NCBI GenBank assembly: GCA_004369045.1
Contig: ML213525.1
Coordinates: forward strand, 65,789 to 129,788
Direction: 5' to 3'
From: Heliocybe sulcata
Lineage: Eukaryota; Basidiomycota; Agaricomycetes; Gloeophyllales; Gloeophyllaceae
Length of the DNA: 64,000 nucleotides
Both the position numbers and the translations under genes were made by a program. Positions 2,796-26,528 of the stretch are shown here, one piece after another. The notes under the pieces are model-generated. The model had not been told where the DNA came from and ran no database searches. It saw nothing but the letters and a program-made list of their open reading frames with translations. Within the stretch, counting starts at the first letter, position 1, and every line of letters begins with the position of its first letter.

Positions 2796-3563
2796 CTAAT
2801 AGACCTCCCCGACGTCTGGGTGGGCGTGACCATCATCACCTCCTTCGGACCACGTCTCCGCTGCCTGTTCCCTCCGTCTCCTGCGCTCCATCACCCTAGG
2901 AAAATGTCAGACATCGATCTACTAGCATCATGGGTTAATTGGATGAATGACTTACGAGTCCGCCCAGAAGTAATTCCCAAAATTTCTGATGGGCGGGGCG
3001 GAATCGATCTCGCTGCTCGCCTCGCCGGTGGGGAAAGGTATAGTGCTGATCTCTTTGGGTCTGAGAGGAGGCCTTGGCACTAGGTTTTTGGTCGTTGACT
3101 TGACGGACGAAAGCTTAGTTTCTGGCTTCTTCTTCTTGCCCCGCTTCTTGTCTTTCTTTGGCGGTGCTTGAACGCCTTCCGTCCTCTCTACTTCCTAGTC
3201 ACGGGCTATAACCTCAATACTCACAACAAGTAGCAGTAGGGAATGTCACTCACGACCCCAAGCTCATGTTGTGCACCGGTCCCCAAGACCTCGTGGATCG
3301 TTGGACTGTTCTGGTACTGGGCGAAGCGGCCTAGTGGAATCCAAAGCTGCAGGCGCAAGACAATCAACTCCACGAACTCGTCGAAGATGGAAGGGACACA
3401 CGTGGTATTTTCCCTCCGCAGGCCGTGCCCGATAGCTGTTCATGGGCCAGCGAGGGGTCTGCCAATTTCCCCGGCCGTCTTGGGGCTCCCACTGCCACAA
3501 ATAGTTCTTCACAATGGTGATCTTCCGCGTCCTTGCGTCCTTGGAATGGCAGGGATTCGACAT
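2796..3563 (-). CDS. LG/TIPFP family gene b, left copy (intact)
   Basis: Unrecognised 194-residue protein. Exons are 3402-3563, 3254-3346, 2956-3185 and 2796-2895 (162, 93, 230 and 100 bases), exactly the lengths of the right-arm copy. Exon 1 (MSNPCHSK...) is Trp-rich (QWEP, NWQTPRWP) and ends in a Tyr-His just before a phase-0 intron. Exon 2 carries LWIPLGRFAQYQ and PTIHEVLG. Exon 3 starts with a very basic stretch (KKDKKRGKKKK) and holds the TIPFP box and NYFWADS. Exon 4 is a charged helix-like tail (MERRRRREQAAE). No signal peptide or membrane segment is visible; the basic stretch could be a nuclear or nucleic-acid contact. The frame is open throughout, so I treat it as a working gene of unknown function. 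Confidence 0.75.
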
Positions 3564-4782
3564 CGCTGGCTGTAGCACGGTAGAGAGGAGATGGTGACAG
3601 TGCGCAGGGAGTAGCTGATACCTGTCGGTACGTGGCGCGGATCACATCAGCTTATCTATCCATACCTCATCCCTTTCACTGCCTCATAGATCAGGAAATG
3701 CGCTTCTTCCATTACGCTACCGATATGGGGAAGATGTGCGTATGTCTTCATATTTCACTATCACAATGGGTGAGCGGCTTGGTACTAATTGGCGCTACGA
3801 CGAAACAAATGTCATGATAAATATGATCAGTAGGGTTCGGGCCCAACTTGCCGACAGACGATGGCAGAAAACACAAGCACCTCTAATGCGCATATCAAAA
3901 CAGACTGTTCCCCCGTTCAAATGTCTATATTCCTTGAGCAAACTGACAATTGACTGGAGAGCTCTTCCCTTCTCTCTGATTCCATACCTTTCATACGCGG
4001 CCTCGTGAAAGCCTCGTGTATCTCTGCCGAATAACCCATGAGACCTTCCTCGCTTCAAGGACCCTTCAGACGTTCCTGTCCGGTGATTTCGCATTGACTC
4101 ACCACTTTGTACGTTTGAATAAGCGTGCTCGGGTTGGCCTAAAGAGACGTGTAGTCGTATAGCTGAGAGGCTCCTATGCAGGTCTACGCGAACAGCCACA
4201 AATGAAATCACGTGTATCCTTCCGCTGTCTCCTCGTTTGGATTCTACTTTGCAAGGCGGAAGTTTTACTACACGCCTCTTTCGATATTGAGTGCTGCTGG
4301 CTTCCTTGTACTTTGACTGCAGCAACATACCGGACGCACGCAAGCAACGACTGGTCGGATAACATGGGCGGTGTCGCTGGCCGTGCCTTTAGCGTGTTCG
4401 GCACTGGTTGACGATGCAGCCGAGTTCAAGAGATCTCAGAAGCAATGCAGCGTGGGCGTAGGCGAGCGATGGTTTGACGGCTATTCGTAAGTGTGATGTA
4501 CAATTGGTGCTTCCGATACGACAGAGCTATACATAGGTGAATTGCAGGGCCAGTCCTCTAGAGATGAAAAAGATATATCAGACGTGCATGGACGGTTTTC
4601 TCAAGAGAATCCCTGCAGGTTTGCGTAATAAATTAGAGAATGTGTCGTGAGGTTCGTCCAGGCCGCGCGTTTGCATCGTTGTACCGTCGCCCATGCCCGC
4701 CTTGCTCCATCAGTTCCTACAGACGAGTCCGTCAACATCTGTGCGAGCATATTGGCCTCAAAACTAACCCCACTCACAAGAT
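3564..4782. other. upstream region of gene b; no supported gene
   Basis: The first 100 bases upstream of gene b hold a block shared with genes f and b-right (a GAAGAAG..GCGC run and an AGCTGATG sequence). A 182-codon open frame on the minus strand (3795-4343) is not open in the corresponding part of the other arm (about 19200-19760), so I do not call it. Both arms keep sequence similarity here, including an ACACGTGATTTCAT segment, so a divergent gene or a regulatory region could be hidden. Confidence 0.4.
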
Positions 4783-5327
4783 TTACGCTGATTCAGCGCA
4801 AGGAAAAGGAACGGTGTTCTTATCTCGGATTTTCAGCACTGTAATCGCCGTAGAGGGAGGCTGCACCACTAGGTCATCCTCGTCCGGTACCCAAGCCCAC
4901 TCCTCATCATCCTTGGGGAGCGGCGTCCCCTCACGCTTGCAATAAATAGCGCCATTCTCTTGCATATAGATGCTGTGTTGAATGCAATGCTCGGTCTGGT
5001 CAGGAGCGAGGAATTGAATGTCAGTCTGATATCTGTCTCATCAGCATAATCGAATCACTTACCAATACCAACTGCTTCACCATGATAGATGTCGCCAGCC
5101 TGTCCAACGACGACTCCTCTCTCGCGTCCGTGTAGCGGGCAAAAGGCATCTTTGTCTTCAACGGGTAAGACAATATGCCACCTCTCGTAGGAACACCGTA
5201 CCTTGTGTCTCTGCCACCTCTTCAGCGGAGCGACCAGCTGAACGCCAGTGCGTGCTTTCAGCGAGTCTTTGACGGTTTGCTTGAGTTTTGTGATCTTATC
5301 CTTCTTGGACGGAGTAGCTGGGGCCAT
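4783..5327 (-). CDS. LG/TIPFP family gene c, left copy
   Basis: Unrecognised small protein, about 143 residues. Exons are 5202-5327, 5063-5155 and 4783-4995. Exon 1 (MAPATPSKKDK) is Lys-rich and ends KRWQRHK. Exon 2 reads KMPFARYTDAREES and LATSIM, the local form of the IPLGR exon; this frame is supported because the right arm keeps it open while the alternative frame has a stop there. Exon 3 starts with TEHCIQH, contains EWAWVPDEDD and ends VPFPCAESA. A shared GTAAAT sequence after the last codons could be a donor to a fourth exon in both arms, but the stop TAA is the simplest reading. A TATATAAA-like box lies at about 5380-5390. Confidence 0.65.
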
Positions 5328-5690
5328 GGTGACGGAGGAACGAGGAGCTCGATGAAGGCGCAATACCGGTGATAGAACCCTTTATATCTCTGCAAGTTTG
5401 ATGCCACTGATGGATGAACACAAGCTTCTCGACCCGAGCGACCGCTTCTGAAGCTGGGTGTGGAACACGAGGCTTATCACGATGCTGATCATGAGTCTCG
5501 TGTCACGCCAAGATAATGGATGGTAAGCTCTTGCACGCTGGTGTCGCGCATCTCTCTCTAACAAATCACAATAAACTCGTCGTCTCACCAATCCAATATA
5601 TTTCGCATAGATAATTCCCTCGACATCGTAGCTCGTCGTGAGGATGTACGCACCACACGACCGCACGACGATCGCCGCCGAACCTGCGAC

Positions 5691-6444
5691 CTAAACCATC
5701 ATCGCAATACCCAGCATCTGAAGAGCTTCGACAAGTGCGCTATCGACTCTGGGGTCTGCATGACCCAATCTTCTCTCGAGCTCTTCAAAGGTGCTGTAGA
5801 ATGGATCAGCTTAGTAAAAGGTAGTTGGGCAGGAGACGCACTCGATTAAAGCGTCCCCGGTGGGAGGCAGACGAGGGAAAGGGATTGTGCCTTTCTCATA
5901 TGCGTCGAGAGCTGGTCTCGGTGACTCTTGTAAGTTGGCAAAGGTTGCCGACTGGGAAGGGTTTCCCAGCTCATTCTTGGCGAGCGTGTTGCCTGTGTTC
6001 CCACACGTGCGGATGTCCTCAACGTTACTGAGAATCTTGTCCTTTGGCACGTAGAGTCCCCGCTTAGCGTCCTACGAGCAAAGCTCGTTATCATCAGTCT
6101 GAACAGATGGTACGCACATGGGTACGCACAAGTACTGGCGGCATAGCGATAACATCCGCTACTGTTTCCTCAGTCCTCGCGCCCTTCCTGTGCTCGACGC
6201 CGCCACCCCTCATCTGCGGTGAGGAAGGTGAGGACAACCCAGGCCTCCATTCATCAACCGTACGCACCTCTCTGCGCTCCTCCTTCTTCTGCCACGTCCA
6301 CTTTTGCAACCACCGTCGTCCCGCCTGCCACACCGGCCAACTGTCGTCGAACCGGTATTCTTGCGGCCCGAAAGGGTCATTGGTGGGGATAGCGTTCTCA
6401 CATCCACAGCCGCACATCCTCGGCATATACAGCTGCTCTGACAT
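5691..6444 (-). CDS. LG/TIPFP family gene d, left copy (intact)
   Basis: Unrecognised 197-residue protein. Exons are 6268-6444, 6130-6213, 5842-6071 and 5691-5793 (177, 84, 230 and 103 bases), all identical in length to the right-arm copy. Exon 1 has a Cys motif (MCGCGCENA) and Trp-rich YRFDDSW..WQAGRRWLQKW. Exon 2 aligns with the IPLGR exon by position and by the VEHRKG..EE pattern. Exon 3 contains the LG box (NELGNPS) and GTIPFPRLPPTGDA. Exon 4 is a likely amphipathic helix (EELERRLGHADPRV, then ALVEALQM). Exons 1, 2 and 4 are nearly the same in both arms, but exon 3 is strongly diverged while keeping its length. The shared upstream module lies at 6445-7206. Confidence 0.75.
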
Positions 6445-6539
6445 CTTGAAAAGCGAGCGTGCGGTATTGGTCAAGGTGATGATGGTAGGAGATCGGGGGC
6501 ACCTGGGGCTTTTGACGATTATTGGTGCGTGATGCGCGC

Positions 6540-6830
6540 GGCTTATATCAGCTTCTAGACCGCTAAAGAGCTCGTTCTTACTAGCCAATCCGGACGGAAG
6601 ATGCGGGTGTGTCTAAACGGGGCGAAGGCGTGCTTCTTTATCTCTGCCGACTGATTCGACTTTACAACTGCGATGAGGTATGGATGCTTATGGGCTCAGG
6701 TGGGTGTGTATATCATATGATGGACGGCTCTAGATGCGCTGAATCTAGGTGGTATTGTTCTATCTGATGTGATCGATGTGATGGGGGTAATCCGGGCGTC
6801 TTGATGACATTTGCGGACCTTCATTGGCTA
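6540..6830 (-). promoter_or_regulatory. promoter module of gene d, left copy
   Basis: Reading on the minus strand, a CCAAT block (6805-6830, followed by GAAGGTCCGCAAA) is followed by the CACCTGAGCCCATAAGCATCCATA block (6675-6707) and a TATA-like GATATAAGC (6540-6551) about 100 bases before the start codon. The same three blocks in the same order precede genes e, d-right and, with changes, f. Confidence 0.6.
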
Positions 6831-7141
6831 CCGGGCGTGGCACACGCCGCTTGCACAGACTCTTGCGATCCTTTCTTTTGTGATGGAATTATTGCCTCCT
6901 CTGTGACAATGTGGAATGAAGTCATCGCAGACAGTCGTGTATATTCCCTACGTTCTCCGAGTCAGCGCTAGAAATCGATACCGCTCGTTCTGAGATGATG
7001 TGTTTTGGTGTCTTGCTTGGTGCATTCACTTGATATGGAATTGGATCCAGCACGCTAAGAGCGAGTACCGCGAACCAATTGTCTCGAACGTACTTTAGCC
7101 CGCGATGTTAGCAAGATTTTGGTTGGCTTGCGGTGGCACAG

Positions 7142-7206
7142 TGACGAAAATCAATAGCCCCTATACGCGCTGCTGCGCACCAGAAAGTTTACGTCACGTG
7201 GTCGTG
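7142..7206 (-). promoter_or_regulatory. CACGTG...TATAGGGGCTATT element
   Basis: On the minus strand a CACGTGA site is followed about 35 bases later by TATAGGGGCTATTGATTTTCG. Copies stand at 8774-8825, 14948-14992, 16552-16610, 25076-25124 and 35862-35918. Distance to the next family start codon is about 698 bases here and 697 for the right-arm partner. Role unknown: upstream activating sequence, boundary, or the end of the upstream transcript. Confidence 0.6.
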
Positions 7207-7356
7207 CTCTCATGGCGCGTCACTGCGTTGCCAACCAACCTCTCCGCCTCTCATTCTGCTTCCAATATCTACGCTTATACCAGCCAACCACCTACTCCCA
7301 GTCCATCCTCGACATACTGAATTCTCATCAAATACAATCCTTACAGGATCTATACC

Positions 7357-8159
7357 TCAGAGCGGCAGATCTATCCCGGGCGTCGCAAGAGTCGCCTCCG
7401 CTGGTCTTTCGTAGCGGCCCTCGATATACTCTCCGTATCCCGCGAGTGCCCGATCTCTGGCCATATCGGCCAAGATTATCTCTTTAGACCGGCTATGCGC
7501 TGGGTTAGCTCGGATGGATGTATGATAGGACAGAGACGCACTCGAATGAGACGGCCAGGGTAGCATGAGGGGGTGGAGATGGGATTGTAGCGGTCGTGCT
7601 CGGGTTGAGAGGGGGTTTTGGCGGCTGGTCTTTTTCTTCGGCTAGAGAGCCCGATGAAGCCTGATCACCCAGCCCCTTCTTGACCCGCTCGATGGGTTTG
7701 TCCATCGACACACAGATTTCTTGTTCGGTCTCGCACACCTTCGCCGGTGAGGATTCAACCTTCCTCAGTGCGGAGTCCTACGCGATGCATTGACTGTTAT
7801 GACACTGGACAGATAACAGGAACATGAAGACTTACCACGATCTGCCCATCGATAGCACCTGCTGCGGCTTTGTGAACCCCCAGAGTCCCGCTTCGTTCGA
7901 CCGCGTAAGCGTCGAGCTTGGGAAAAGCAGGTCAGAACATCCTATGCTGTTGATGGTGAGCGGCACGCACATTAATCTTGCCGGCCTCCTTCGCGGGCCA
8001 CCTTTCCAATCTCCCCTGTCGGGTCTGCCACACTCCACCGCTAGCTCCCTTTCGCCCCAGAGGATCATCCGCAAAGGTAACACTGCTTCGCCTACGCTCG
8101 CCCGCTTGCATATGAACCTGTTCAGGCATCTCAGAGGGCGAGTGTACAGTGCCAGTCAT
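7357..8159 (-). CDS. LG/TIPFP family gene e, left copy (intact)
   Basis: Unrecognised 213-residue protein. Exons are 7971-8159, 7836-7916, 7542-7777 and 7357-7492 (189, 81, 236 and 136 bases), the same lengths as the right-arm copy. Exon 1 (MTGTVHSP) has RRRSSVTFADDPLGRK and the Trp motif GVWQTRQGRLERWPAKE. Exon 2 is the short family exon. Exon 3 holds CETEQEICV, VKKGLGDQA (LG box) and a TIPSP box. Exon 4 (RSKEIILADMARDR, YGEYIEGRYE) is a charged helix-like tail. The last intron uses a GA|GTGCGT donor, as in gene d, and an acceptor after GCATAG that keeps the frame. No targeting signal is visible. Confidence 0.75.
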
Positions 8160-8228
8160 GGTAGTGTTGGTAGCGGGTCGAGATGCGACTAGGGTTCGTC
8201 GGGGCTTGGGGGTGCGTGAGCCGGGCAG

Positions 8229-8465
8229 CTTATATCCGTTTTCGCTTTGCTTAGATACCGGAGAAGTCAGGGAACGACGCGCTTCTTTATTTCTGTCGGC
8301 TGATTCGATTTTGCAGCGGCGGCGAGATATGGGCGCTTATAGGCTCAGGTGGGTGGATATGTCCTTCTCGCCGGCTCTAGATGCACTGCTGCTAGGTGCG
8401 TGGTATTATCTGATGGTATCGATGGCGGTTCAGGGTCCCGGATGAGGTTTGTGGGGTTTCGTTGG
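8229..8465 (-). promoter_or_regulatory. promoter module of gene e, left copy
   Basis: On the minus strand the CACCTGAGCCTATAAGCGCCCATAT block (8326-8360) is followed by a TATA-like GATATAAGC (8229-8239) about 70 bases before the ATG. The block near 8441-8465 corresponds to the CCAAT block of the other copies, but reads CCAAC here. Confidence 0.55.
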
Positions 8466-8773
8466 CTGCGGGGCGTGCCACGTCTTACTTCTGGAAACTA
8501 TCGCTGTCCTTCTTTTCGTGACGGGTTTGCTGCCTCCGTTCCGATAATTAAAATTTAGCTTACCATATGGGAACCATGTGTATGCCATCTGTTCTCCAAG
8601 TCATGGCAAGAAATCAGTCGATATGCGGCGTACCCCCTCGCCTCTTTCCTTATGCGTCAGTTCCTGGAGGGAACGACTAGAGCAGTCCAATATCGGATAA
8701 TATAGCTGTACGTACTTCCGATCACCTGACTATCTACTATGCGAGTCTTGTGGGAGGGAAGCGATAGCAGAGG

Positions 8774-8825
8774 ACGAGAAGCAATAGCCCCTATACACGC
8801 CGCTACGCGCAAAGGTCACGTGCTA
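8774..8825 (-). promoter_or_regulatory. CACGTG...TATAGGGGCTATT element
   Basis: Mirror partner of 14948-14992, about 615 bases upstream of gene e. It lies close to the inner end of the left arm. Confidence 0.55.
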
Positions 8826-8849
8826 TCACGCGCCCCGCGTCTGCCTGGT

Positions 8850-10254
8850 CGACCTCCCTTTATCTGAACGCACTCGTGATCTAACCAAAGCTTATACCGT
8901 GCAGAATTAGGCAGGGTCCTTTTTGGATTATACGCTGCTTGGAGCAGTCGCGTCTCTTCGCCTTCACACTTAACCCCCAATGCACATCATTGCCTCTGTT
9001 TTAGGTATACACGCCTGCATGAAAGCCTCCAGAAGGCGAAAAACGACGTGCGAGGCAATTGCGTCGACTCGCGGGCTCGAGGTGAGGCGAGGTGGTATTG
9101 AGGCTTCGAAGTCTTGAAGACTGATCCGGTACACCACCCTGACAAATGAGAATACAAATCTGGAAGGTATCCGACCGCATTATGAAGGATACTTGTGTAA
9201 AATACGTTAGGTGATGCATAATACCGCGACATCAAAGGATTCTGCCTCATGACCTGATAAGCCTATGGACGCCAGTCGGAATCACCTGTGTCTTCGGTGA
9301 GCTGCAAGAGTGGGATGTACTTAACGAGCCGGGAAGTATCGTCTGAGTACCGCGGTGCTCGGGTGTTTGAGCTTGAGGGCGGAGCTTGCGACTAAATCAA
9401 TCGATTTCATGCGGGAAGGTGACATACACTGATAGGCCTTGCAGACTTTTCTTGTAACCTGACGCCTAGCTAGTAGCCTGTAGAGCTAAAGCAGATGCGC
9501 GTTCTGTCTCTGGCATACCGCCCATGCGTGTACGATAGTTTCCTGTCCAATGCGGATACTTGATCCAGAAGACCATAGGATCATGTATCGATTCCTCTCC
9601 TGCCCTGCCGCGTCCTAACTGGCTCCGAGAGACGCCGCCTCCGGATATCAGAATGACGTCTGCGGGAGGACGAGGTACCACGGCATTCGGCCGTCTGGAA
9701 GAAGCAGACCGTTGGTAGATGCGAAGTCAGGGACCTCGGAAGATAGTGCTAATACAAGAGACCGCGGTCGGAGCGTCTTTGTCGCGCGGCTTGCAGTGAA
9801 TGACAATGTAATCTTGCTGACTAAGGGGATCTCTCGTTAGCATTCGTTGCGCGTGAATCTCCTTTCCTAGAACATACATCACAGGACCAGAATGTCCGTG
9901 CTTCAAGCCTTCGTATCTGTGCACCAAACTTGCCAAAACCCCCACGTAGATTGGACGATCATCGATCACGACTTGCACCAATCCGCGCGCGCCAGTTTGC
10001 GGCCGTGCTTCTCAGTGTTCGACGCTGGAGCAACAACTCTCTGACCTTGTTCGCTGGCATCCCTCAGCCAATCATTATCCTGCCTGGACAAGACGACCGC
10101 ACTCAGTCTGGCTCCGAAGAGGGAGGTGGGAAGTCGGAGGTGCAGTATCATAATTGATTTGGAAAGAACAGCCAGCTCGGTGAGCAATCAGAAGTCATAA
10201 AACTATTCCATTCATTTTCCAGCAGTCCAAGCTATAGATCATCGTTACTCCGAC
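8850..10254. other. left part of the central spacer; uncertain coding pieces
   Basis: No gene can be supported. On the minus strand 9727-9981 and 9466-9681 are open and look protein-like (for example ISGGGVSRSQLG and VFWIKYPHWTGNYR, a Trp pattern like exon 1 of the family), so a diverged family member may lie here. I could not find a consistent exon chain. Confidence 0.3.
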
Positions 10255-10890
10255 GCCTCGCTTGCCTGACCCTCTTCACCTCCTTGCCAACCCGCCTCAG
10301 CTTCACGCTCTCGCTGCCTCCTGCGCTCGGCGACGCTAGCAAGGTATCAAATAGCATTCACCTGGCGATGACGCAGAAACGCACGGGTCGACCAAGAAGT
10401 GATTCCCAATCTCCCTGATGGGTGCGGTAGAGAGGGCGCGGGTGCTCTCGCCGGTTCCGAAAGGTATGGTGTTGATCTCCATGGGGTTAAGCGGAGACCT
10501 TGGCACTAGCTCTTTGTTCGTTAAGGTGACGGGCAGAGGCTCAGTACCCAGTGTCTTCTTCTTCAGTCGCTTCTTCTCTCTTCTCAACATCCTACCAGAA
10601 CGTTGCAAATTTGGTACTGATAACGACGATCATGTAGAGAATGCGGCGCCCATCAAGACCTCGTGGATCGTCGGCGCATTCTGATACCGAAAAAAGCGGC
10701 CCCGCGGGATCGAGAGCTGCAGATACAGAACTCGAGCACTGTTAACTCGTCGAAGATGGAGACGACGTACGGGAGAGTTGCCATTCGCAGGCCGGGCAAG
10801 GTAGCTATTCAAAGGCCACGGAATCTCCTGACATAGTCGGCGGCCGCTCAGTGCCGGATGTAGTTCTTCACGATGATATCGTGGTGGTGG
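10255..10890 (-). pseudogene. decayed LG/TIPFP family member (b/f type)
   Basis: All four exons are recognisable in order on the minus strand. Exon 1 (IVKNYIR, then a stop codon) is at about 10790-10890. Exon 2 (IPRGRFFRYQNAPTIHEVLMGAA) is near 10640-10725, with its distal end replaced and its donor lost. Exon 3 (KKRLKKKTLGTE, TIPFGTGES, NHFLVD) is at 10385-10591, with a one-base loss near its start relative to f. Exon 4 (AERRRQREREAEA) is at 10255-10335. The intact parts are closest to gene f at 25894. A relic of the shared promoter lies at 10960-11060. Confidence 0.7.
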
Positions 10891-14937: not shown

Positions 14938-14947
14938 CGCGTGATGA

Positions 14948-14992
14948 CACGTGACCTCTACGCGTGGCAGCGTGTATAGGGGCTATTGATTC
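14948..14992 (+). promoter_or_regulatory. CACGTG...TATAGGGGCTATT element
   Basis: CACGTGAC followed 27 bases later by TATAGGGGCTATTGATT; 617 bases upstream of gene e, right copy, against 615 for its mirror partner. Confidence 0.55.
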
Positions 14993-15300: not shown

Positions 15301-15550
15301 GCCAATGAAACTCCACAAAACTCATCCGGGAGCCTGAACCGCCATCGTGACCGCATCGATACCATCAGATAATACCACGCACCTAACGGCAGTGCATCTA
15401 GAGTCGGCGAGAAGGACATATCCACCCACCTGAGCCTATAAGCGCCCATATCTCGCCGCCGCTGCAAAATCGAATCAGCCGGCAGAAATAAAGAAGCACA
15501 TCTTTCCCTGACTTCTCCGGTATCTAAGCAAAACAAAAACTGATATAAGC
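15301..15550 (+). promoter_or_regulatory. promoter module of gene e, right copy
   Basis: The CCAAT block (15301-15325), the CCACCTGAGCCTATAAGCGC block running on into CCATATCT (15422-15453) and GATATAAGC (15540-15550) occur in this order before the ATG at 15609. Confidence 0.6.
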
Positions 15551-15608
15551 TGCCCGGATCAAGCCCCGACGAACCCTAGTCGCGTCTTGACCCGCTACCA
15601 ACACTATC

Positions 15609-16411: not shown

Positions 16412-16551
16412 GGTAGAGATCCTGTAAGAGTTGTGTTTGTTGAGAATTCAGTATGTCGAGGATGGACTGGGAGTAGGTGGTTGGCTGGTATAAGCGTAGA
16501 TATTCGAAGCAGAATGAGAGGAGCGGTTGGTTGGCAACGCGAGAGCACGAC

Positions 16552-16610
16552 CACGTGATCTAAACTTTCTGATGCGCAGCACCGCGTATAGGGGCTATTG
16601 ATTTCGTTAC
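16552..16610 (+). promoter_or_regulatory. CACGTG...TATAGGGGCTATT element
   Basis: CACGTGATC, then TATAGGGGCTATTGATTTCG after 35 bases; 697 bases upstream of gene d, right copy. It also lies 140 bases beyond the stop of gene e, so a role at the 3' end of e cannot be excluded. Confidence 0.55.
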
Positions 16611-16922
16611 TGTGTCGCCGCATACCACCCAATATCTTGCTAACATCGCGGGCTGAAGTACGTCGAGACGAGTGATTCACATTCCCTGCTCTTAGCGTGC
16701 TAGATTTAATCCTCTCGCGAGTGAATGCGCCAAGCACGACGTTAAAACACGTCGTCTCAGAGCGAGCGTCCATCGATTTCTAGCGCTGACTCGGAGAACG
16801 TAGGGAATATACGCGACTGTGTGCAATGACTTCATTCCACATTGTCACAGAGGAGGCAATAGTTCCATCGTCAAAGAAAGGATCGCAAGAGTCTGTGCAA
16901 GCGGCGTGTGCCACGCCCGGTA

Positions 16923-17210
16923 GCCAATGAAGGTCCGCAAAAGTCATCAAGACGCCGGTATTACCTCCATCACATCGATAACATCAGATAGAACAACACC
17001 ACCTAGATTCAGCGCATCTAGAGCCGTCCATCATATGATATACGCACCCACCTGAGCCCATAAGCATCCATATCTCATCGCCGTTGTAAAGTTGAATCAG
17101 CCGGCAGAGATAAAGAAGCATGCCTTCGCCCCGTTTAGACAGACCCGCATCTTCCGTCCGGATTCGCTGGTAAGAACGAGCTCTTTAGCGGTCTAGAAGC
17201 TGATATAAGC
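16923..17210 (+). promoter_or_regulatory. promoter module of gene d, right copy
   Basis: CCAATGAAGGTCCGCAAA (16923-16948), the CACCTGAGCCCATAAGCATC block running on into CATATCT (17045-17076) and GATATAAGC (17201-17210), about 97 bases before the ATG. Confidence 0.6.
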
Positions 17211-17306
17211 CTCGCGCATCACGCACCAATAATATTCAAAAGCCCCAGCTACACTCCATCTCCTACCATCATCACCTTGACCAATACCGCACGCTCGCTT
17301 TTCAAG

Positions 17307-18049
17307 ATGTCAGAGCAGCTGTATATGCCGAGGATGTGCGGCTGTGGATGTGAGAACGCTATCCCCACCAATGACCCTTTCGGGCCGCAAGAATACCGGT
17401 TCGACAACAGCTGGCGGGTGTGGCAGGCGGGACGACGGTGGTTGCAAAAGTGGACGCGGCAGAAGAAAGAAGAGCCCAGAAAGGTGCGTACCGTTGATGA
17501 ATGGAGGCCTCACCTTCTCACTGCAGATGAAGGGTGGCGGCGTCGAGCACAGGAAGGGTGAGAGGACTGAGGAAGCAGTAGCGGGTGTTATCGCTCTGCC
17601 GCCGGTGCTTGTGTGTATCTATATTCATGTTATCTGTTCATACTCATGACAACGAGCTTTCCCCGTAGAGTGCTGAACGGCAATTCTACATGTCAAAGGG
17701 GCAAAATACTTGTAAGACGGACAACGTCGACACGTCCGAGAAGACACAGAAACATGGAGAGAAGGGGGAACTTGGTAACCAGTCTTCATTGATCACATCC
17801 ACCAATAAAGACCAGTTGCCAAAACTTCCCCTCGATGCAAGGGAGGAAAACACAATCCCTTTCCCTCGTGTGCCACCCACCGGGGATGCCTTACTCGAGT
17901 GCGTCGCCTGCCGAATTACCTTTGACTAAGCTGATCCATTCCACAGCACGCTCGAAGAGCTCGAGAGAAGACTGGGTCATGCAGACCCCAGAGTCAATAG
18001 CGCGCTGGTCGAAGCTCTTCAGATGATGGGCATTGCAATGCTGGCTTAA
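17307..18049 (+). CDS. LG/TIPFP family gene d, right copy (intact)
   Basis: Unrecognised 197-residue protein. Exons are 17307-17483, 17527-17610, 17669-17898 and 17947-18049 (177, 84, 230 and 103 bases). Exon 1 holds the Cys motif MCGCGCE and YRFDNSW..WQAGRRWLQKW. Exon 2 contains GGGVEHRKGERTEEAV. Exon 3 begins SAERQFYMSKG and contains GELGNQSS, KLPLDAREENTIPFP and PPTGDALL. Exon 4 is EELERRLGHADPRVNSAL. Against the left copy, exon 1 differs at only a few positions, whereas exon 3 is hardly alignable at the start yet has the same length. Function unknown. Confidence 0.75.
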
Positions 18050-18383
18050 GTCGCAGGTTCCGCAATGATCGTCATGTTATGGGTATCACGATGAGCCATG
18101 ATAGCGAGAGACTTATCTGCATGAAATATATTTAATTGGTGCGACAATGAATTTATCCTGATTTGTCAGAGAGAGACGTGCGACAACAGCGGTTAAGAGC
18201 TTACCTGGACGTGAATCGAGACCCCTGATCATCATCGTGATAAGCCTCGTGCTTTATACCCGGCTTAAGAAGCAATCGCTCGGGTCGAGAAGCTGGTTTT
18301 CAGCCATCAGTGGCATCAGACTTGCAGATATATAACCATCACCAGCATTTCCCGTTCATTCTCCTCCTTCTCGCTCTACCAAC

Positions 18384-18945
18384 ATGGCTCCGGCTACCCC
18401 TCCGAAGAAGGATAAGATCATAAAAGTCAAGCCATCCGTCAAAGACTCACCAAAAGCACGGGCTGGCATTCAGCTGGTCGCTCCGCTGAAGAGGTGGCAG
18501 AGGCACAAGGTGCGCTGTTCCTGCGGAATGTGCCACATTGTCTTATCATAGCCCGCAGACGTCGAAGGCAAAGATGCCTTTTGCCCGCTACACGGACGCA
18601 AGGGAGGAATCATACTTGAACAGGCTCGCGACATCTGTCATGGTTAAGCAGTCTGGATTGGTAAGTCATTCGCTTGGGGCGATGAGAGAGCCATTAGAGC
18701 GACCTTTTGATTTCCTCGTCACTCGGCAGACCGAGCGCCGCATTCAACACGGCATGTATATACAAGAGAACGGCGCTCTCCACTTCAAGCGTGAGGAGAC
18801 GCCGCCTCCCGAGGATGCCGATGAGGAGTGGGGTTGGGTACCGGACGAGGATGACCCAATGGTACAGCCTCCCTCTACGCCGGGTCCGGTGCTGAAAGAC
18901 CGAGATAAAAACACAGTTCCATTCCCTTGCGCTGGATCAGCGTAA
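18384..18945 (+). CDS. LG/TIPFP family gene c, right copy
   Basis: Unrecognised protein, about 147 residues. Exons are 18384-18509, 18559-18660 and 18730-18945. Exon 1 is Lys-rich (PKKDKIIKVK) and ends KRWQRHK. With the acceptor at 18558, exon 2 reads SKAKMPFARYTDAREES and LATSVM, which matches the IPLGR exon and keeps phase 0. The other possible acceptor (after CATAG, 18551) gives a stop. Exon 3 starts TERRIQHGMYIQENG, has EWGWVPDEDD and ends VPFPCAGSA. Exon 2 is three codons longer than in the left copy. A fourth exon via the GTAAAT donor at 18942 is possible but weak. Confidence 0.65.
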
Positions 18946-20109
18946 ATCCTGTAAGTTTTCAGGCCAGTATGCTCACACAGTCGTTGACGGACTTGCCCGT
19001 AGGGACTGATGAAGCGAGGCGGGCCTATGCGACACTACGGCAGAGCAAAGGGGCAACATGTACGGATCTCCTAACGCGTTCTCTGCGATCTGGTCCTGTG
19101 CGACAGTTTAAGAAGAAAGTTCATGCTCGTCCGACATCTTGTTCACCGTAGGGACTGGCCCTGCAATTTGCCAGCTATAGCTCTGTCGTATGGAATCAAC
19201 AATTGTACATCAAACATACCAATAACCGTCAACCATCGTTCGCCTACGCCCACGTTGCATCGCTTCTAAGATCTCTAGAACTCGGCTACACCGTCAACTC
19301 CAGTACCGAGCACGCGAAATGTATGGCCAGTGACGCCCACGTTATCCGGGCAGTCGTCGCCTATGTGCGTCGGCCATTCGTCTTGCAGTCAAAGTAGGTG
19401 GAAAGTCAGCAGCAGTCAATATTGATGTCGAAAGAGGCGAATGGAGCTTGAAGCCTGCGCCTTGCAAAGCGGGAAGAGACTGCGGAAGCGTACACGTGAT
19501 TTCATATGTGGCTGTCCGCGTACGTAGACGTGCATAGTTTCTCAGATCTCAACTATACGACTACACTTCTCATTAGCACACCCGAAAGAGCACAGAAAGT
19601 GGTGAGTCAATGCGGCATCATCGGAGAGTAACATCTAAAGGGACGTTGAAGCGAAGAAGGTCTCATGGTATATTCGGCAGAGATACATGAGGCTTTCACG
19701 AGGCCGCGTATGAGAGGTATGATTTAAATCAACGAGACAAGAAGAACCCAGTGGTCGATTGTCATATAATAAAAATTGGGGACACTTACACAGCGAGACA
19801 GTTCGTTTTGAATCGTGCCCCAGAGAGGCTTGTATCTCAATGGAACCAGTAATCATCTTCATCATCGCGATTATTTAGCAGATAGTGCCACCTAATTCCA
19901 GAGCGCTCAACCATTCCGATGACGATCAAAATATGAACACATATACGCATATCTGCCCCATATCGGTAGCGGAAGAAGAAGCGCATTGTCTACTCTATTA
20001 GGCAGTGAAAGAGATGAGGTACAGATAGATAAGCTGATGTGATCAACAGGCTCAACCACTCTTGACTGCAAACCAGTATCCTCTCCTCTCTACCGTGCTA
20101 CAACCAACG
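18946..20109. other. between c and b in the right arm; no supported gene
   Basis: Matches 3564-4782 in reverse complement. It holds short frames only. The last 200 bases before gene b contain the GAAGAAGAAGCGC and ATAAGCTGATG sequences also found before genes b-left and f. Confidence 0.4.
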
Positions 20110-20878
20110 ATGTCGAATCCCTGCCATTCCAAGGCCGCAAGGACGCGGAAGGTCACCATCGTGAAGAACTATTTGTGGCAATGGGAACCCCAGGACGGCC
20201 GAGGAAATTGGCAGACCCCTCGCTGGCCCATGAACAGCTATCGAGCTCGGCCTGCGGAGGGAAACTACCACGTATGTCCTTCCCATCTTTGACGAATCCG
20301 TGGGATTAATTCTCCTGCTCCCGCAGTTCTGGATTCCCTTGGGCCGCTTCGCCCAGTACCAGAATTCTCCAACGATCCAAGAGGTCTTGGGGGACAGCGC
20401 TCGAGATCGGCTTGGGGTCGTGAGGGGCATTCCCTAATTGCTCGTTGTTATCAGTATTGAGGTTACAACCCGCGGTTAGGACGTAGAGAGGGCGGAAAGC
20501 GTTCAAGTACCCACGAAGAAAGACAAGAAACGGGCTAAGAAGAAGAAGCCAGAGACTAAGCTTTCGTCCGTCAACTCAACGACCAAAAACCTAGTGCCGA
20601 AGCCTCCTCTCAGACCCAAAGAGATCAGCACTATACCTTTTCCCACTGGCGAGGCGAGCGGCGAGATCGATGCCGCCCCGCCCATCAAAAACATCGGGAA
20701 TTACTTCTGGGCGGACTCGTGAGTCACTCATCCATTTGACCCACGGTGCTAGTAGATTGATGTCCAGCGCTTTACTAGCGTGATGGAGCGCAGGAGGAGG
20801 AGGGAACAGGCAGCCGAGGCGTGGTCCGAGAGAGGTGATGATGGTCACGCTAACCCAGACGTCGGAGAGGTCTATTAG
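20110..20878 (+). CDS. LG/TIPFP family gene b, right copy (intact)
   Basis: Unrecognised 194-residue protein with exons 20110-20271, 20327-20419, 20489-20718 and 20779-20878 (162, 93, 230 and 100 bases). Motifs are LWQWEP, GNWQTPRWPMNSYRARPAEG (exon 1), FWIPLGRFAQYQNSPTIQEV (exon 2), KKDKKRAKKKKPE, VPKPPLRPKEISTIPFPTGE and NYFWADS (exon 3), and MERRRRREQAAEAW (exon 4). The acceptor of exon 3 (GTAGAG|AGG) was chosen because the left copy has the same acceptor and only this choice keeps the frame in both. No secretion or membrane signal is seen; the basic run suggests a nuclear or nucleic-acid-binding protein, which is inference. Confidence 0.78.
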
Positions 20879-22135
20879 CGATGCATGGTGATCGTTGCTT
20901 GAGCTACCGAGAAGTGAATCAAATGAATTGACGGGATGTTGTTTCACTTACCCATGACCTGAGCTCTGTTTCCCCACTACGTTGGGGGTAATGCTGCTGT
21001 TCCCAATGCTGCACTGTCGGATTGTTTCCCTACGAGAGTCCAAATGTTCACTCACGACCGTCTCGACCGACCGAAAGGACGCTTTGCAGAGTTATCTTTG
21101 CTTCCTGTTTCTTGGTTCTTGCAGGCGACACTCTGAGTACTATGTTCCGTTCGTTGGCGAAACCATTGCATTCCGTGCGGACGAGCAAGTACGAGGACTA
21201 GTGAGGTCGCTGGTACTATTGATAGTCTGTTTTGGTTTGCGCCGGCGTCTGAGATTCTTCATCCCTTCCCCGGACGGACGGTCTATCTGATAGCATGCGA
21301 TGGACAAGACGAGTTGCAAAGGTGATTCGGGAAGACGATACCTGTCCGTAGCAGCCTGCCTTTAAGTCTTTCTGGCTATAGGCAGGCCCCTCCTGAGTAT
21401 ACTACACACCTTCAACTCAATCAGTGTCTGGAAGTGAGGTCTCGCACTGCAAATGGCTTTACTCCGGACACGGACTCCTATTTTGCAACCATAAGGTAGA
21501 TTTGCGGACGCAGTTTGCGAGGCAGTGTCGCGACGACGGGACCTTCTATTGTGGCGCCTCACTTGCGCGCGTACCTAAGTCTCGTATACAAGCTGTCAAC
21601 GCTCTCAGACATGTGCATGATAGCAATACCTTTGTCTTCATTTGCCGTACTGTGGGTTGTACGAACTTGACGGATAGCAACGGCATGGCGGGCCATAGTG
21701 ACCATCAGGCAGTGTGTGTAGATGGAAATTCTGCGGGATCAGACTCTATCGAGCGAAACATATCATATCTGCTCTGTGGCAGCGCTTCCTTTGAGCTCGG
21801 CCACATCTCGCAATCAGCCATATCGACACCCCATTGTCCGCTTCAGCCACGCACCCACGCGCTGGCAAGGTGTGGCATTGCCACTCCACAGGGATATTGT
21901 AGCGTAGCGACCTCCATCAGAGCAGCGAAAACGTGTAGTGGTTACCACGTCAGTGGACGTCTTCACTTCATTGTCCATGATTACACGAGGAGTTGCAGAA
22001 GCTTCCGACTCCAATCGGGTATCTGCGGTGGCACGATCAGATACCAAGCCTCCAGAGTATATAAAAAGAGCCACCACCCGCCTGATACATTCGCTAACCT
22101 TCAGTCATCCATTCGTATCCACTAGCGCTGCTACT
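20879..22135. other. intergenic, conserved with 1573-2795
   Basis: No family boxes and no long conserved frame. A TATATAAAAAG box (22067-22076) lies about 65 bases upstream of gene a. Confidence 0.45.
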
Positions 22136-22698
22136 ATGCCCACGTCCGCTGAGGTGACCAGAGGGCGGCCGATCGCCAGGCAGTCTGCGGTAGCTGGTAT
22201 CTGGCTCGTCAAGCCGATCAAGGTGTGGCACGAATCTAAAGTACGTCTGCGAACCTTATATGTGGAATACACGTCTCAGCAGTCGTCCATAAAGTTCGGA
22301 ATCCCCTTGAGTCGCTATATCGAAGCGCAGAAAGCGCCGTGCCTGGATGATATCGCGTCATGGATTATGGAGACCCCTTTGTCGTTCGTGAGTGGTTTTG
22401 ACGACGTTTCTGTGGAACAGATTCCTGATCGCATCGGACTATTCAGCTTGATGACTGTGGGTGCAGGGAGTGCAGACACATCCGGCGCGATATCTACATG
22501 CCGCGTCGCAGCCCTGCTTGTACCAAACCACAAGAGACTCTCATGCCGAAGAGAGTACGGGACGCAGGAGTTCAAACACTCGGTGAAGACGACATCGGAG
22601 TAGAGTCTACGTCGATTGCCCAATCAAACATAAACACAACGCCGACCCCGGCTTTCGAGACTGACGATGAGAAGACCATACGTTTGCCTTCCCAGTGA
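22136..22698 (+). CDS. LG/TIPFP family gene a, right copy
   Basis: Unrecognised 154-residue protein. Exons are 22136-22240, 22280-22387 and 22447-22698 (105, 108 and 252 bases), with phase-0 GT-AG introns. Exon 1 is MPTSAEVTRG..IWLVKPIKVWHESK. Exon 2 is SSIKFGIPLSRYIEAQKAP, then DIASWIM. Exon 3 is LDDCGCRECRHIRRDIYMPR, QTLGEDDIG and a terminal KTIRLPSQ, the degenerate form of the TIPFP box. The Cys cluster in exon 3 (C-x-C-x2-C) is unique to this paralogue and could bind metal; that is inference. Confidence 0.7.
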
Positions 22699-23640
22699 TT
22701 TGCGTGGACGGATGTGAGTGTGCTTTCTCGTCAACTCCTTCTTCACCGCGACTGGATCTGATCTGTCCTGTCTTGTCGACCTGAAAGAGACGAGTCTGAC
22801 TAATTGGGGATCGTGCTGGGCTAGACATGGGAGCTTGTTGAGGGCTGAGGCCTGAGGTATCGCCTGCTTTGCTGTGAATGTCGTACGACGTAGCTACGGG
22901 ATCCTGGGTATCCTGGCAATTGGGCTTGCAGTACTCTTTAGAATCACAAAGCAGCATGCTTACTTCTACAAGCTCCTTCATTGTTCCCATGGATACATTG
23001 CACGTCTCTACTCCCTCTCTGCTTGACGTATCCTATCTCAGCAGTACTAGTCCTGCAGCGATCTTATAGACGCTCTTCGCCCGGGGTTGAAGCTCCTAGT
23101 ATCACTCCCTGAGCCAGAGTGAAGCAGAAACGTTGTGACCTGAGGTGTAGATGGGGCGTCTCTGGTAGTGAAGCCGAATCAAGTCGAACACTGAGAAGCG
23201 CGAGTAAGAAGGCCCGATTTGTTCCAAACTCTATTTGAGCTCAAGCCTCTGGAGTCTGCAGACGAGTGACCATTCTACTTTGCACTGGATCTTGCGCCGA
23301 AGATGTCTTTGATGGCCCAACGAGAGTGGTATCGGAAGCATCGAACCAGTCTCGTCATCGTCATGGGCTCTGCGGGACTTTCATATCCTATGGCCAAAGC
23401 TCTCAGTGCGCTACAGCACCAGCGACGCAATTGTATTGCGAACTGATGATGCTCATACCGTTCTTACATACTTATAGCGGCACACTATCCCACTTAACTC
23501 GAACATTCAAAAACGATTGATCTACCTTCATGATCGGTGTCGCTTCACCTATCTGATGAGCAAGCCCAATTTCAGCGAGAGTAAGCTCGGGTTCCATTTC
23601 TTTCTCCATTCCACTGACATGCTCTTGATGTACAGAAGAG
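22699..23640. other. outer end of right arm; possible further gene
   Basis: Sequence matched to 1-890. Short conserved frames occur (MSLMAQREWYRKHRTS at 23300, MSKPNFSESKLGFHF at 23557, the latter followed by a GTAAGT donor). A sixth paralogue may straddle the arm end, but no complete exon set is visible. Confidence 0.3.
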
Positions 23641-25075
23641 GCTCAGATAGATGCCGAGATGTTCCTGTAAGTTCCGGTCTGTCTTGCCTCTGCGACGCCT
23701 GTGGATAGACCAAGGCGCGGAAGGTGAAATCGTGACTCTGTGAAGAATCAGGACCCAGGAGAACGTTTCGCAGGAGTGTTATACATCCTCCTTGTCCACA
23801 GCAACAAGACTTATCTCTAGATGAGACTAGGGAGTTTGATACGGCTAGGCTACTGCCTTCCTCTCATCCGACTCACCGTAACGAAGCTGTACTGGATAAC
23901 ACCCATCCGGGCCCTTACGTGTATCAACAACTCCACAGACCAAGAAGTGAGTATGCGATGGAAATGATCCTTCGTATTGAGCCATATAATCTAGAACCTT
24001 TGGAGTCAATCTAACTTGGCCCGTCATGTCATGACAAATCGTGAAGGTGACGCGATTGCGTATACCCCAGGCATGTGCCGCAGAGGGTTCCGCCCCTCTC
24101 TTCATGTCCTTGCATGGGATGGTCAGAAGCCTAATCAACATATGAAGCCCGGTTGTCATGTGAAGTCTTCCGACATCGCATCCGATGTTTATACTGTCAT
24201 TTGGACGGAAATACCGTTATACTATAAGCCCGGACCACGCCATATCAAGTGAACCGCCGCAAGTAACTGATTATCGGCCTGCCTCTTGAAGTTGGAGATA
24301 TTCCACAACCGCATCCATCTCCACTGATTCAAAGCCAAGATGTTTCATCTCGTTACCAGGACCGGAGACTTTTGCCGTAACTCGACCAAGTTACCCCGGA
24401 GTGCTCACAGGTATGACAGGTATGACGACGTCTTCACCGTATGATCTGGCGGGCAGCATTTGAACACCTTATTTGATTGGACCTACACTACACAAAGCTG
24501 CCTCTCGTATCAGCTACAGCATGGGACAACTTAGCAAAAGTGCGCCCTCTCCCTCATCGTGCCTTTGTAAATCTGGGTCGGTGTCGGTCCTAATACACGC
24601 GTGGCAGAGGAAGCCCGGAAGCTCGAGTCTGAGGAGTGCAATATCCTCGGCTACCGCCCTCCTGCAGGCACCTCGTAACCGTACCTAGTCAAAGGTGTGC
24701 CGACGGCGGGGATTGGAACTCCACAGAGCGTAAGAGACATCGAACGAGTTAAGCTTGCGACGTGCAGGTAAGCCTAGCCGCGTCCCGTCCAGCCTCCAGA
24801 CAGGCGCGGAGCACTGTAGAATATCTAGAAAGGATGGGACGGATAGACGTTGAAAGTGACATGCAGGTGGCCATAGTAAAGTCACTCTGATGGTGTTAGC
24901 TTCAGAAGCGTACTGCACCAAGACAGCCTTACTCCTTTTAAGAGGACATCACACTCTAGAATCAAATGCAATCAGATTAACAAGTGCACTCTGCAGAAAG
25001 ACGAGAGGGTTGGTTTACTTGGCCGTCCGCGTCGTGACAGTGCAGTGACGCGTCGCGTCGGATTCAGGGTACGAA
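23641..25075. other. no supported gene
   Basis: Only short frames without recognisable domains on either strand. Confidence 0.4.
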
Positions 25076-25124
25076 CACGTGATCTTCATTCTCGGCGTGT
25101 ATAGGGGCTATTAATTTTCGTTAC
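25076..25124 (+). promoter_or_regulatory. CACGTG...TATAGGGGCTATT element
   Basis: CACGTGATC, then TATAGGGGCTATTAATTTTC; 770 bases upstream of gene f. Confidence 0.5.
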
Positions 25125-25594
25125 TCTACCACTGCTTCCCATTCAAACTTACCAAGACCACGACGCGAGGTAACTCCAGGCAAGTGTATCCAATCAGCAC
25201 GGCCCGTAGGCCATCGCACTGTCGCTGGCAAAGGTTGGGTGTGCTGTAACTCGCGAAGGCAATACGCCAGGAAAGAGGTCAGGGTGCTTACCCAGTCAGG
25301 GGACGAGCGGTATGTCGTGCTAACTCAAAGAACAGAGCAGAATACATGATTCGTCTGCGAGAAATCAATGTCACGTTCCCTGACGGTGGCAGGGAGTTCC
25401 TGTACACGAGACTGAATCAGGTCCACCTCTGCAACAATATGTAACGCGATGGGTGATCAACGAGGGTCCGCGCAAGTCATCAGCGAGCGCACGAATTGCA
25501 CGGTATTGGATATCGCTCACTATCAAGAGGGCGTTAAGGAGTTGTTCCACGAAGAAACGATTACATCGCCGCCGTAAGGGACGTGGGGCCCAGT

Positions 25595-25740
25595 CGCCAA
25601 TGGAGGTCCGCAAAGGTCATTAGGGACGCTGGGTCTCTATCAATAATATTGGATAATATCGGGCCAACTATCTGCACTACAGCACCTGATCCCGTTGATA
25701 ATGACATATGCACCCATTTGAGTCCATAAGCACCCATATC
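25595..25740 (+). promoter_or_regulatory. promoter module of gene f
   Basis: CCAATGGAGGTCCGCAAAGG (25597-25620) and CACCCATTTGAGTCCATAAG, which runs on into CACCCATATC (25710-25740), are the gene d/e module in diverged form. Confidence 0.5.
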
Positions 25741-25893
25741 TGCAGTTACTGGTATGATCGAGACATGCGGCAGAAAAGAAGAAGCGCCGGTCATGCTCCA
25801 TTAGGCTGGGAAGAACATCGATGAGCTGATGTGAGTCCAACAGGCATCAACAAACCTCTTGACCCCCTACTACCACCTCCCCGTCGTATCGCA

Positions 25894-26528
25894 ATGGACG
25901 GCACTACCATCGTGAAGAACTACATCCGCCAGTGGGATCCGCCGAATGGCCGCCGACTATGTCAAGCGATACGGTGGCCGTTGAACAGCTACCGTGCCCG
26001 GCCTGTGAAAGGCAACTACCACGTACATTGTTCCTTCCTTGGACTAGTCCATGCCGTCTGATGCTCTTCTCCTGCAGCTCTGGATCCCGCTGGGCCGCTT
26101 TGCTCAGTACCAGTACGCGCCGACGATCCACGAGGTCTTGATGGGTGCTGCTCGTGGCCAGCAAGCGTCGGTGAGTGGCATTTTCGAAATGATACCTGTT
26201 ATCGGGATCAGAGTTGCGACGTCCCGTTAGGATGTGAAGAAGAAAGAGAACAAGCGAGCGAAGAAGAAGGCGTTGGGTACTGAGTGTCCATCTGTCAACT
26301 CGACAAATAAACACACAGTGCCTAGGCTTCCGCTCGACCCAAAAGAGATCAATACTATACCATTCCCCACCGGGGAGAGCACCCACATTATCTGTTCCAC
26401 GCCCGTTAGGGAAATCGGGAATTACTTCTGGGTCGACTCGTAAGTCTCTTGTTCATCTTTCCTCTATGCCAGAGATTATCTAATACCATGCTAGCGTGAT
26501 GCAGCGCAGGAATGGTCCAAGGCGGTAA
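25894..26528 (+). CDS. LG/TIPFP family gene f
   Basis: Unrecognised 154-residue protein, closest to gene b. Exons are 25894-26022, 26078-26170, 26231-26439 and 26495-26528 (129, 93, 209 and 34 bases). Exon 1 lacks the first residues of b and starts MDGTTIVKNYIRQWDP. Exon 2 is LWIPLGRFAQYQYAPTIHEV, then LMGAARGQ. Exon 3 is KKKENKRAKKKALGTE (LG box), VPRLPLDPKEINTIPFPTGE and NYFWVD. Exon 4 is cut to SVMQRRNGPRR by an early stop, so the charged tail of b is missing. The frame is open and all splice sites are canonical. Confidence 0.7.

What the first reader, a model, noticed from the sequence alone, without database searches (positions are those of the whole stretch)
2796..26528. An undescribed family of small four-exon genes (LG/TIPFP family)
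At least 11 loci (a-e twice, f) share exon order and phase: a Trp-rich exon 1, a phase-0 exon 2 of 81-108 bases with [IM]P[LF][GA]R[FY] in most members, a variable exon 3 with an LG[TNDE] box and T-[IV]-[PR]-[FLS]-P, and in b, d and e a charged helix-like exon 4. I recognise no known domain. Conserved gene structure with low sequence identity suggests a genuine rapidly evolving family.
Basis: partly seen in the sequence, partly recalled or inferred. Interest (0 to 1): 0.85.

Follow-up and report, generated by a model that had tools for sequence, protein, structure and literature searches.

The report
Orphan fungal gene family in palindrome
A mushroom-type fungus carries a mirror-image cluster of small spliced genes that match no family in the protein libraries searched; the two mirror copies have been kept by selection while one internal segment of one gene differs strongly, but what the proteins do is unknown.

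Summary
They lie on two ~15 kb inverted arms around a ~4.8 kb centre. Compared between copies, the proposed frame has w 0.36 and only terminal stops; the other five frames have 49-82 stops. Each arm pair shows purifying selection (w 0.23-0.51).

A-F form two firm groups, {A,C} and {B,F,D,E}; their union, and the link to neighbouring G genes, rests on gene structure and weak similarity. No Pfam match; no PDB match beyond chance for three profiles. Firm relatives in this genome lie here and, for G/H, at a second locus 34-82 kb from pheromone-receptor exons. Part of D exon 3 is a divergence island (53.5% identity, flanks 83-96%) that fits exchange between paralogues. D, E, F and a relic share an upstream element.

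Best reading: a lineage-restricted, conversion-prone family of small, probably intracellular and largely disordered proteins that bind a shared partner through the exon-3 box. Function unproven; other fungi could not be searched.

The parts
1..9451 (.). Left arm of the inverted repeat (continues left of the window to about -5965); carries E2, D2, C2, B2, A2, all on -; F2 and G2 lie further left, outside the window
   Evidence: self-BLAST; arm alignment
14237..29807 (.). Right arm of the inverted repeat; E, D, C, B, A, F, G1, all on +
15609..16411 (+). Gene E, 213 aa; exons 15609-15797, 15852-15932, 15991-16226, 16276-16411
   Evidence: w 0.51 against E2
7357..8159 (-). Gene E2, 213 aa; exons 8159-7971, 7916-7836, 7777-7542, 7492-7357
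17307..18049 (+). Gene D, 197 aa; exons 17307-17483, 17527-17610, 17669-17898, 17947-18049; 17669-17840 only 53.5% identical to D2
5691..6444 (-). Gene D2, 197 aa; exons 6444-6268, 6213-6130, 6071-5842, 5793-5691
18384..18945 (+). Gene C, 144 aa, three exons 18384-18509, 18568-18660, 18730-18945
   Evidence: w 0.33 against C2
4783..5327 (-). Gene C2, 143 aa, three exons 5327-5202, 5155-5063, 4995-4783
20110..20878 (+). Gene B, 197 aa; exons 20110-20271, 20327-20419, 20480-20718, 20779-20878
   Evidence: w 0.23 against B2
2796..3563 (-). Gene B2, 197 aa; exons 3563-3402, 3346-3254, 3194-2956, 2895-2796
22136..22698 (+). Gene A, 154 aa; exons 22136-22240, 22280-22387, 22447-22698 (intron 1, 22241-22279, 39 nt, doubtful)
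1321..1572 (-). Gene A2, exons 1572-1468 and 1428-1321; exon 3 from 1248 downwards, out of frame with A near its end
25894..26528 (+). Gene F, 154 aa; exons 25894-26022, 26078-26170, 26231-26439, 26495-26528; its partner F2 lies at -2027 to -2689 outside the window
   Evidence: w 0.28 against F2
10387..10845 (-). B5, decayed B/F-type member in the centre between the arms
   Evidence: tblastn; length changes in the alignment
36575..36938 (+). B4, B/F-type member without a recognisable exon 1
27534..28105 (+). Gene G1, 150 aa, exons 27534-27662, 27722-27817, 27878-28105; partner G2 at -3684 to -4255 outside the window; third copy G3
31724..32440 (+). Gene G4, 201 aa, exons 31724-31834, 31897-31956, 32006-32440; close to the C11 genes H1, H2
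38089..38663 (+). Gene G3, 151 aa, exons 38089-38217, 38277-38372, 38433-38663
14948..14989 (+). Composite upstream element of E (CACGTG ... TATAGGGGCTATT)
16552..16601 (+). Composite upstream element of D
25076..25114 (+). Composite upstream element of F
35862..35909 (+). Composite upstream element before B4 (box with 2 mismatches)
7151..7200 (-). Composite upstream element of D2
8781..8822 (-). Composite upstream element of E2 (box with 1 mismatch)

Best explanation
A lineage-restricted family of small spliced genes, amplified by tandem duplication and by an inverted duplication of the whole block, so that two ~15 kb arms carry the same genes in mirror order (E-D-C-B-A-F-G outwards). Shown: spliced coding capacity, purifying selection between the arm copies, the inverted repeat in the assembly, mosaic divergence, shared upstream elements in D, E, F and B4. 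Inferred: recombination between copies homogenises some stretches (upstream parts and 5' ends of D and E) and swaps others (exon 3 of D); the proteins are intracellular and largely disordered, are expressed together through the CACGTG/TATAGGGGCTATT element, and dock onto one shared partner through the Pro-rich exon-3 box (about 32 residues, LG...PrxPLdp...TIPFP), while exons 1-2 and the charged exon-4 helix give each member its own specificity.
For: Gene models with matching exon order and GT-AG introns in the arm pairs. Ks>Ka in each pair: E p .005, D .001, C 7e-5, B 1e-7, F 5e-5, A (exons 1-2) .0014. Frame control: w .36 and only terminal stops in frame, 49-82 stops elsewhere. Inverted repeat. 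Two control genes occur once each in the genome, so the arms are unlikely to be two merged haplotypes. D: exon 1 Ks .09, exon 3 Ks .82; synonymous heterogeneity exon 3 against exons 1-2 p 9e-6; 94-96% identity upstream and in exon 1 against 53.5% in 17669-17840. D exon 3 scores best with F (117; 84-86 with B, B2; 65 with E), D2 exon 3 best with E (81; 60-64 with F, F2). Exon-3 box shared by B/F, D, E. D-E 30% and D2-E2 23% aa identity but D-E 75% DNA identity over a 219-column upstream block. 15-mer: 6 sites with <=2 mismatches in the window against 0.07 expected; 4 of 4 exact sites and 6 of 8 with <=1 mismatch in the genome lie in this cluster. CACGTG 24-35 bases upstream of the box in 7 of 7 (0.003 expected per site; the sites are paralogous, so not independent). 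Largest 19-residue hydropathy mean 1.23 in 18 proteins, A2 partial.
Against: No transcript, protein or other-strain evidence. Single exons often fail the Ka/Ks test alone (E exons p .06-.48; D exon 3 p .08), and w .5 in D and E is weak constraint. One reverse frame also gives w .54. The reversed 15-mer pattern has 6 genome matches, so its total number is not unusual, only its clustering. D2 exon 3 matches E but not E2 well (81 against 50), so the exon-swap reading is only suggestive. The window copies of A, B, C and G lack the 15-mer. N-terminal 10-residue hydropathy reaches 1.6-1.9 in A, A2 and G4, so secretion is not excluded. Disorder is judged from composition only; the one structure model (N-terminal part of A, two sequences) has mean pLDDT 42 and pTM .29 and says nothing on the fold. 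A2 has lost the last box. Docking and co-expression are inferences.
Confidence: 0.5

Rival explanations
1. A rapidly diversifying recognition or conflict locus (somatic incompatibility, or a spore-killer-like drive locus working as wtf genes do): members recognise or poison by the variable exon 3, and non-allelic conversion generates new specificities.
For: Mosaic exon 3 within otherwise similar copies; similar upstream parts between paralogues, as conversion reaching promoters is reported for wtf genes (passages read, PMC6526906); confinement to two loci in this genome by the queries used; H genes 34-82 kb from STE3 exons.
Against: Ka does not exceed Ks in any pair or exon; no membrane-length hydrophobic stretch although wtf proteins have predicted membrane domains; no HET, NLR or other Pfam domain; no allele data; STE3 and Homeobox_KN matches are not on C23.
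Confidence: 0.15
2. Ordinary developmental or housekeeping orphan genes without special biology; the mirror copies are a structural accident and the D exon-3 patch is one old conversion event.
For: Purifying selection in all six pairs; orphan families are common in mushroom genomes (general knowledge, not looked up).
Against: Seven-gene mirror arms kept at pooled Ks about 0.29, shared upstream elements, and G/H copies at a second locus argue that copy number and co-regulation matter, but do not exclude it.
Confidence: 0.35
3. Not genes: chance open frames or decayed transposon pieces (a Helitron-like element lies just left of the cluster).
For: PIF1 helicase and DUF6570 frames at -15159 to -7126 ('Helitron-like' is my recalled label); a retroelement-like frame further left, judged by eye.
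Against: Frame-specific constraint and conserved splice sites; no Pfam domain in the members scanned.
Confidence: 0.03
4. Assembly artefact: two haplotypes joined head to head.
For: Arm identity of 70-95% could be allelic in a very diverse species.
Against: The centre gene and a flanking gene occur once in 31.6 Mb; sequence beyond the arms shows no left-right match in the part compared; pooled Ks about 0.29.
Confidence: 0.04

Closest known systems
wtf spore-killer family of Schizosaccharomyces pombe
   Same: Multi-exon lineage-restricted family with non-allelic gene conversion that includes promoters and moves segments between members (passages read in PMC6526906)
   Different: No sequence similarity tested or claimed; wtf proteins have predicted transmembrane domains, these have no stretch of that kind by hydropathy; wtf genes are dispersed (recalled), these sit in one mirror cluster; no drive evidence here
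Mating-type loci (homeodomain, STE3/pheromone) of mushroom-type fungi
   Same: Locus of divergent paralogues; H relatives lie 34-82 kb from STE3 exons on C11
   Different: STE3 matches are on C11 and C16, Homeobox_KN matches on C16 and C1, none on C23
Palindromic multicopy gene arms kept by gene conversion (such as mammalian Y palindromes; recalled, not looked up)
   Same: Inverted arms with tracts of high identity beside diverged tracts
   Different: Arm identity is far lower here: 38-98% per 100 alignment columns

Membership tests
   Firm within {A,C} and {B,F,D,E}; between groups p .006-.04 for most pairs, A-E .4
   Phases 0,0 in A, C and 0,0,2 in B, D, E, F
Any Pfam family | Profile match | tested here: not met
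   0 families at E<=1 for A (part), B, C, D, E, F and at E<=10 for A, D2, F2, G1, G4, H1, H2
wtf spore killers | Membrane-spanning proteins | tested here: not met
   Largest 19-residue hydropathy mean 1.23 in 18 proteins; hydropathy only, no membrane predictor on hand
wtf spore killers | Poison and antidote isoforms of one gene | not testable with these tools
   No transcript data
wtf spore killers | Non-allelic gene conversion between members | tested here: inconclusive
   Divergence island in D exon 3 and its best matches
Mating-type locus | STE3 or homeodomain genes in the locus | tested here: not met
   PF02076 and PF05920 searches
Secreted effector family | N-terminal signal peptide | tested here: inconclusive
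   Hydropathy only: 10-residue N-terminal means up to 1.86; no signal-peptide predictor on hand

The most novel reading that the evidence does not exclude
A self/non-self or conflict system of a mushroom-forming fungus, encoded by a palindromic multigene cluster: a constant upstream element and constant docking box, with exchangeable exon-3 specificity modules shuffled between paralogues and arms, and a second locus near the pheromone receptors.
Probability: 0.1. Interest if true: 0.85.

Novelty: new member of a known kind. Interest (0 to 1): 0.5.

Why it matters
Orphan families are many, but few come with an internal replicate: two mirror arms give a built-in test of which parts are constrained. 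If the exon-3 exchange and shared control are confirmed, the locus is a good candidate for a fast-changing recognition or conflict gene set in a basidiomycete, where somatic incompatibility is said to remain poorly understood (start of the abstract of PMC8229728, seen in the listing).

Tried and rejected
Mating-type locus: rejected by the positions of the STE3 and Homeobox_KN matches.

Positive selection on exon 3 of D: rejected as the simple explanation, because synonymous divergence is raised there as well (Ks .82, Ka .49); a conversion or exchange boundary fits better.

Two-haplotype assembly: made unlikely by two single-copy controls.

Viral or prokaryotic source: scans with the B/F alignment gave 54 and 52 pattern matches and 0 relatives. 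One PHROG match for C at E .14 and three V-ATPase G chains at E .39-.67 for the D/E profile in PDB were taken as chance.

tRNAs: none by ARAGORN, a bacterial-code run.

Structure: one job, the N-terminal part of A with A2 read straight through the doubtful 39-nt intron, came back with mean pLDDT 42.4, pTM .29 and no residue at 70 or more; I drew no fold from it and ran no fold search. Its best-scoring blocks (residues 41-60, means 55 and 58) include part of the doubtful intron, too weak to decide.

Papers: seven word searches listed nothing that describes this family. I saw listings and starts of abstracts, plus passages of PMC6526906 and PMC8970355. They cannot show whether the sequences are annotated elsewhere.

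Rows dropped: the pooled frame control leaves out G1-G2 (G1-G3 kept), takes F on exons 1-3 and A on exons 1-2. Its DNA alignment of D/D2 put four one-base gaps into the coding sequence, although both have the same length, and that of G1/G3 has gaps of 3, 3, 1 and 2. Of the family types, E and F were not used as queries of the whole genome; A, B, C, D, G1 and H2 were, and that tool calls its counts lower bounds.
Full report
What the region is. The window is part of contig C23 of a 31.6 Mb, 51-contig genome. STE3-type receptor matches on C11 and C16 and two Homeobox_KN matches point to a mushroom-type basidiomycete; that placing is my inference, and the tools name no species. Self-comparison shows a large inverted repeat: left arm about -5965 to 9451, right arm 14237 to 29807, around a centre of about 4.8 kb that holds a decayed B/F-type copy (B5) and two divergent frames (about 12190-13311 on -, 13386 on +). 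The family genes on the arms are transcribed away from the centre, in mirror order E-D-C-B-A-F-G.

The genes. I built splice models by hand from the arm alignment and checked them by script. E/E2, D/D2, B/B2 and F/F2 have four exons with intron phases 0,0,2; C/C2 and A have three with phases 0,0; A2 is modelled for exons 1-2. In these 12 models the introns are GT-AG, 39-72 nt. G1, G2, G3 and G4 are further three-exon genes with phases 0,0.

Are they real genes? Comparing arm partners by Nei-Gojobori: w is .51 (E).50 (D).33 (C).23 (B).28 (F).29 (A, exons 1-2), each with Ks>Ka (p .005 to 1e-7). Many single exons do not reach significance alone. Pooled over seven pairs (E, D, C, B, F exons 1-3, A exons 1-2, G1-G3; G1-G2 left out), the proposed frame gives Ks .286, Ka .103, and 10 stops, which are the terminal ones. 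The other frames give Ks .10-.22, w .54-1.52 and 49-82 stops. I consider protein coding settled at about 0.95, short of transcripts.

One family or several? Shuffle tests with one representative per type (36 pairs): A-C p 1.5e-10; B-F below 1e-16; D-E 2e-7; F-D 1e-10; B-D 8e-7; B-E 2e-4; F-E 3e-5; G4-H1 below 1e-16; G1-G4 1e-6; G1-H1 2e-5. Between {A,C} and {B,F,D,E}: A-B .006 (aligned exon 2 to exon 2), A-F .010 and A-D .009 (exon 3), C-B, C-F and C-D .02-.04 (final box), C-E .012 (not in register), A-E .40. G/H with A-F: best .02-.04 (B-G1, F-G4, B-H1, F-G1), the rest above .05. Profile comparison: B/F with D/E 2e-7 in exon 3, A with C 3e-6, B/F with A 6e-4 in exon 2, B/F with C .02, D/E with C .025, G/H with B/F .06 and with D/E .22. 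So two firm groups, a probable union, and a possible third group G/H.

Where else? tblastn of the own genome at E<=5: B 17 matches, 16 on C23 and one weak on C1 (E .175); D 13 of 13, C 6 of 6 and A 6 of 6 on C23. G1 13 matches: 10 on C23, two on C11 (best 1.8e-4), one on C25 (E .11). H2, a C11 gene, 9 matches: 6 on C11 at 754.8-764.2 kb and 3 on C23. E and F were not used as queries, and the tool gives lower bounds. STE3 matches on C11 lie at 798.2-836.8 kb, so the second locus is 34-82 kb from them. H1 and H2 read as three-exon genes close to G4. No match outside this genome was found in Pfam, PDB for three profiles (chance matches only), PHROGs for three proteins (one at E .14), viral or prokaryotic contigs for the B/F alignment. 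None of these holds fungal proteomes, so a wider distribution is untested.

Mosaic divergence. Arm identity per 100 columns ranges from 38 to 98%. In D, 507 upstream bases are 94.1% identical, exon 1 95.5%, exon 2 90.5%, but 17669-17840 in exon 3 only 53.5% without a gap, then 82.8% and exon 4 87.4%. Synonymous change is raised there too (27 of 54 sites against 6 of 55 in exons 1-2, p 9e-6), so this is not positive selection alone. D exon 3 matches F best (117; 84-86 with B, B2; 61-65 with E2, E); D2 exon 3 matches E best (81; 60-64 with F, F2; 51-53 with B, B2; 50 with E2). This suggests exchange of exon-3 modules among paralogues, with homogenised 5' parts; it is suggestive, not proven.

Control regions. 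Upstream blocks are shared between different gene types: D-E 75% over 219 columns, D-F2 70% over 203, B4-F2 72% over 300, G1-G4 72% over 222, while the D-E and D2-E2 protein pairs are 30% and 23% identical. A 15-base box TATAGGGGCTATTRA has 6 sites with up to 2 mismatches in the window against 0.07 expected. In the genome all 4 exact and 6 of 8 sites with up to 1 mismatch lie in this cluster; the reversed control pattern had 6 sites, so only the clustering is telling. In 7 of 7 box-bearing genes (D, D2, E, E2, F, F2, B4) CACGTG starts 24-35 bases before the box (0.003 expected per site; paralogous sites are not independent). The window copies of A, B, C and G lack the box.

How it may work. 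The 17 complete proteins examined are 143-213 aa (A2, partial, is the eighteenth), without a hydrophobic stretch of membrane length (largest 19-residue mean 1.23); N-terminal 10-residue means reach 1.6-1.9 in A, A2 and G4, so secretion is unlikely but not excluded. Disorder-promoting residues make up 55-71%; B and F are strongly basic. The most constant protein element over the divergent members of {B,F,D,E} is the exon-3 box. I infer a docking segment for one partner, with variable surroundings. This functional step I hold at about 0.3; the gene family itself at about 0.93. The one structure model (part of A) is of too low confidence to use.

Judgement. The functional claim is open. Interest 0.5; if the exon-3 modules prove to be recognition alleles, 0.85.

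Noticed in passing
L071 and L072 (C11:754800-756800, 758700-761000): Second locus with G4-like genes H1, H2 and a further exon match at C11:764048, 34-82 kb from STE3 receptor matches on the same contig.
   Followed up: partly
window -15159 to -7126 (L008:4841-8758 and, for part of the second frame, L009:1-2874, - strand): Frames with PIF1 helicase and DUF6570 domains, Helitron-like by recall, directly outside the left arm.
   Followed up: partly
window 12190-14200: Centre of the inverted repeat: two divergent frames with no Pfam match at E<=1; the - strand one occurs once in the genome.
   Followed up: partly
window 51757-53334 (-), 62479-63021 (+): Conserved flanking genes: Rttp106-like histone chaperone, once in the genome, and an adaptin N-terminal region.
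   Followed up: partly
window about 979-1248, A2 exon 3: A2 differs from A by a length change near the 3' end of exon 3, so its C-terminal box is lost or altered.
   Followed up: partly
window 42605-43501 (-): Open frame of 298 aa without a Pfam match at E<=0.01; not studied further.
   Followed up: no
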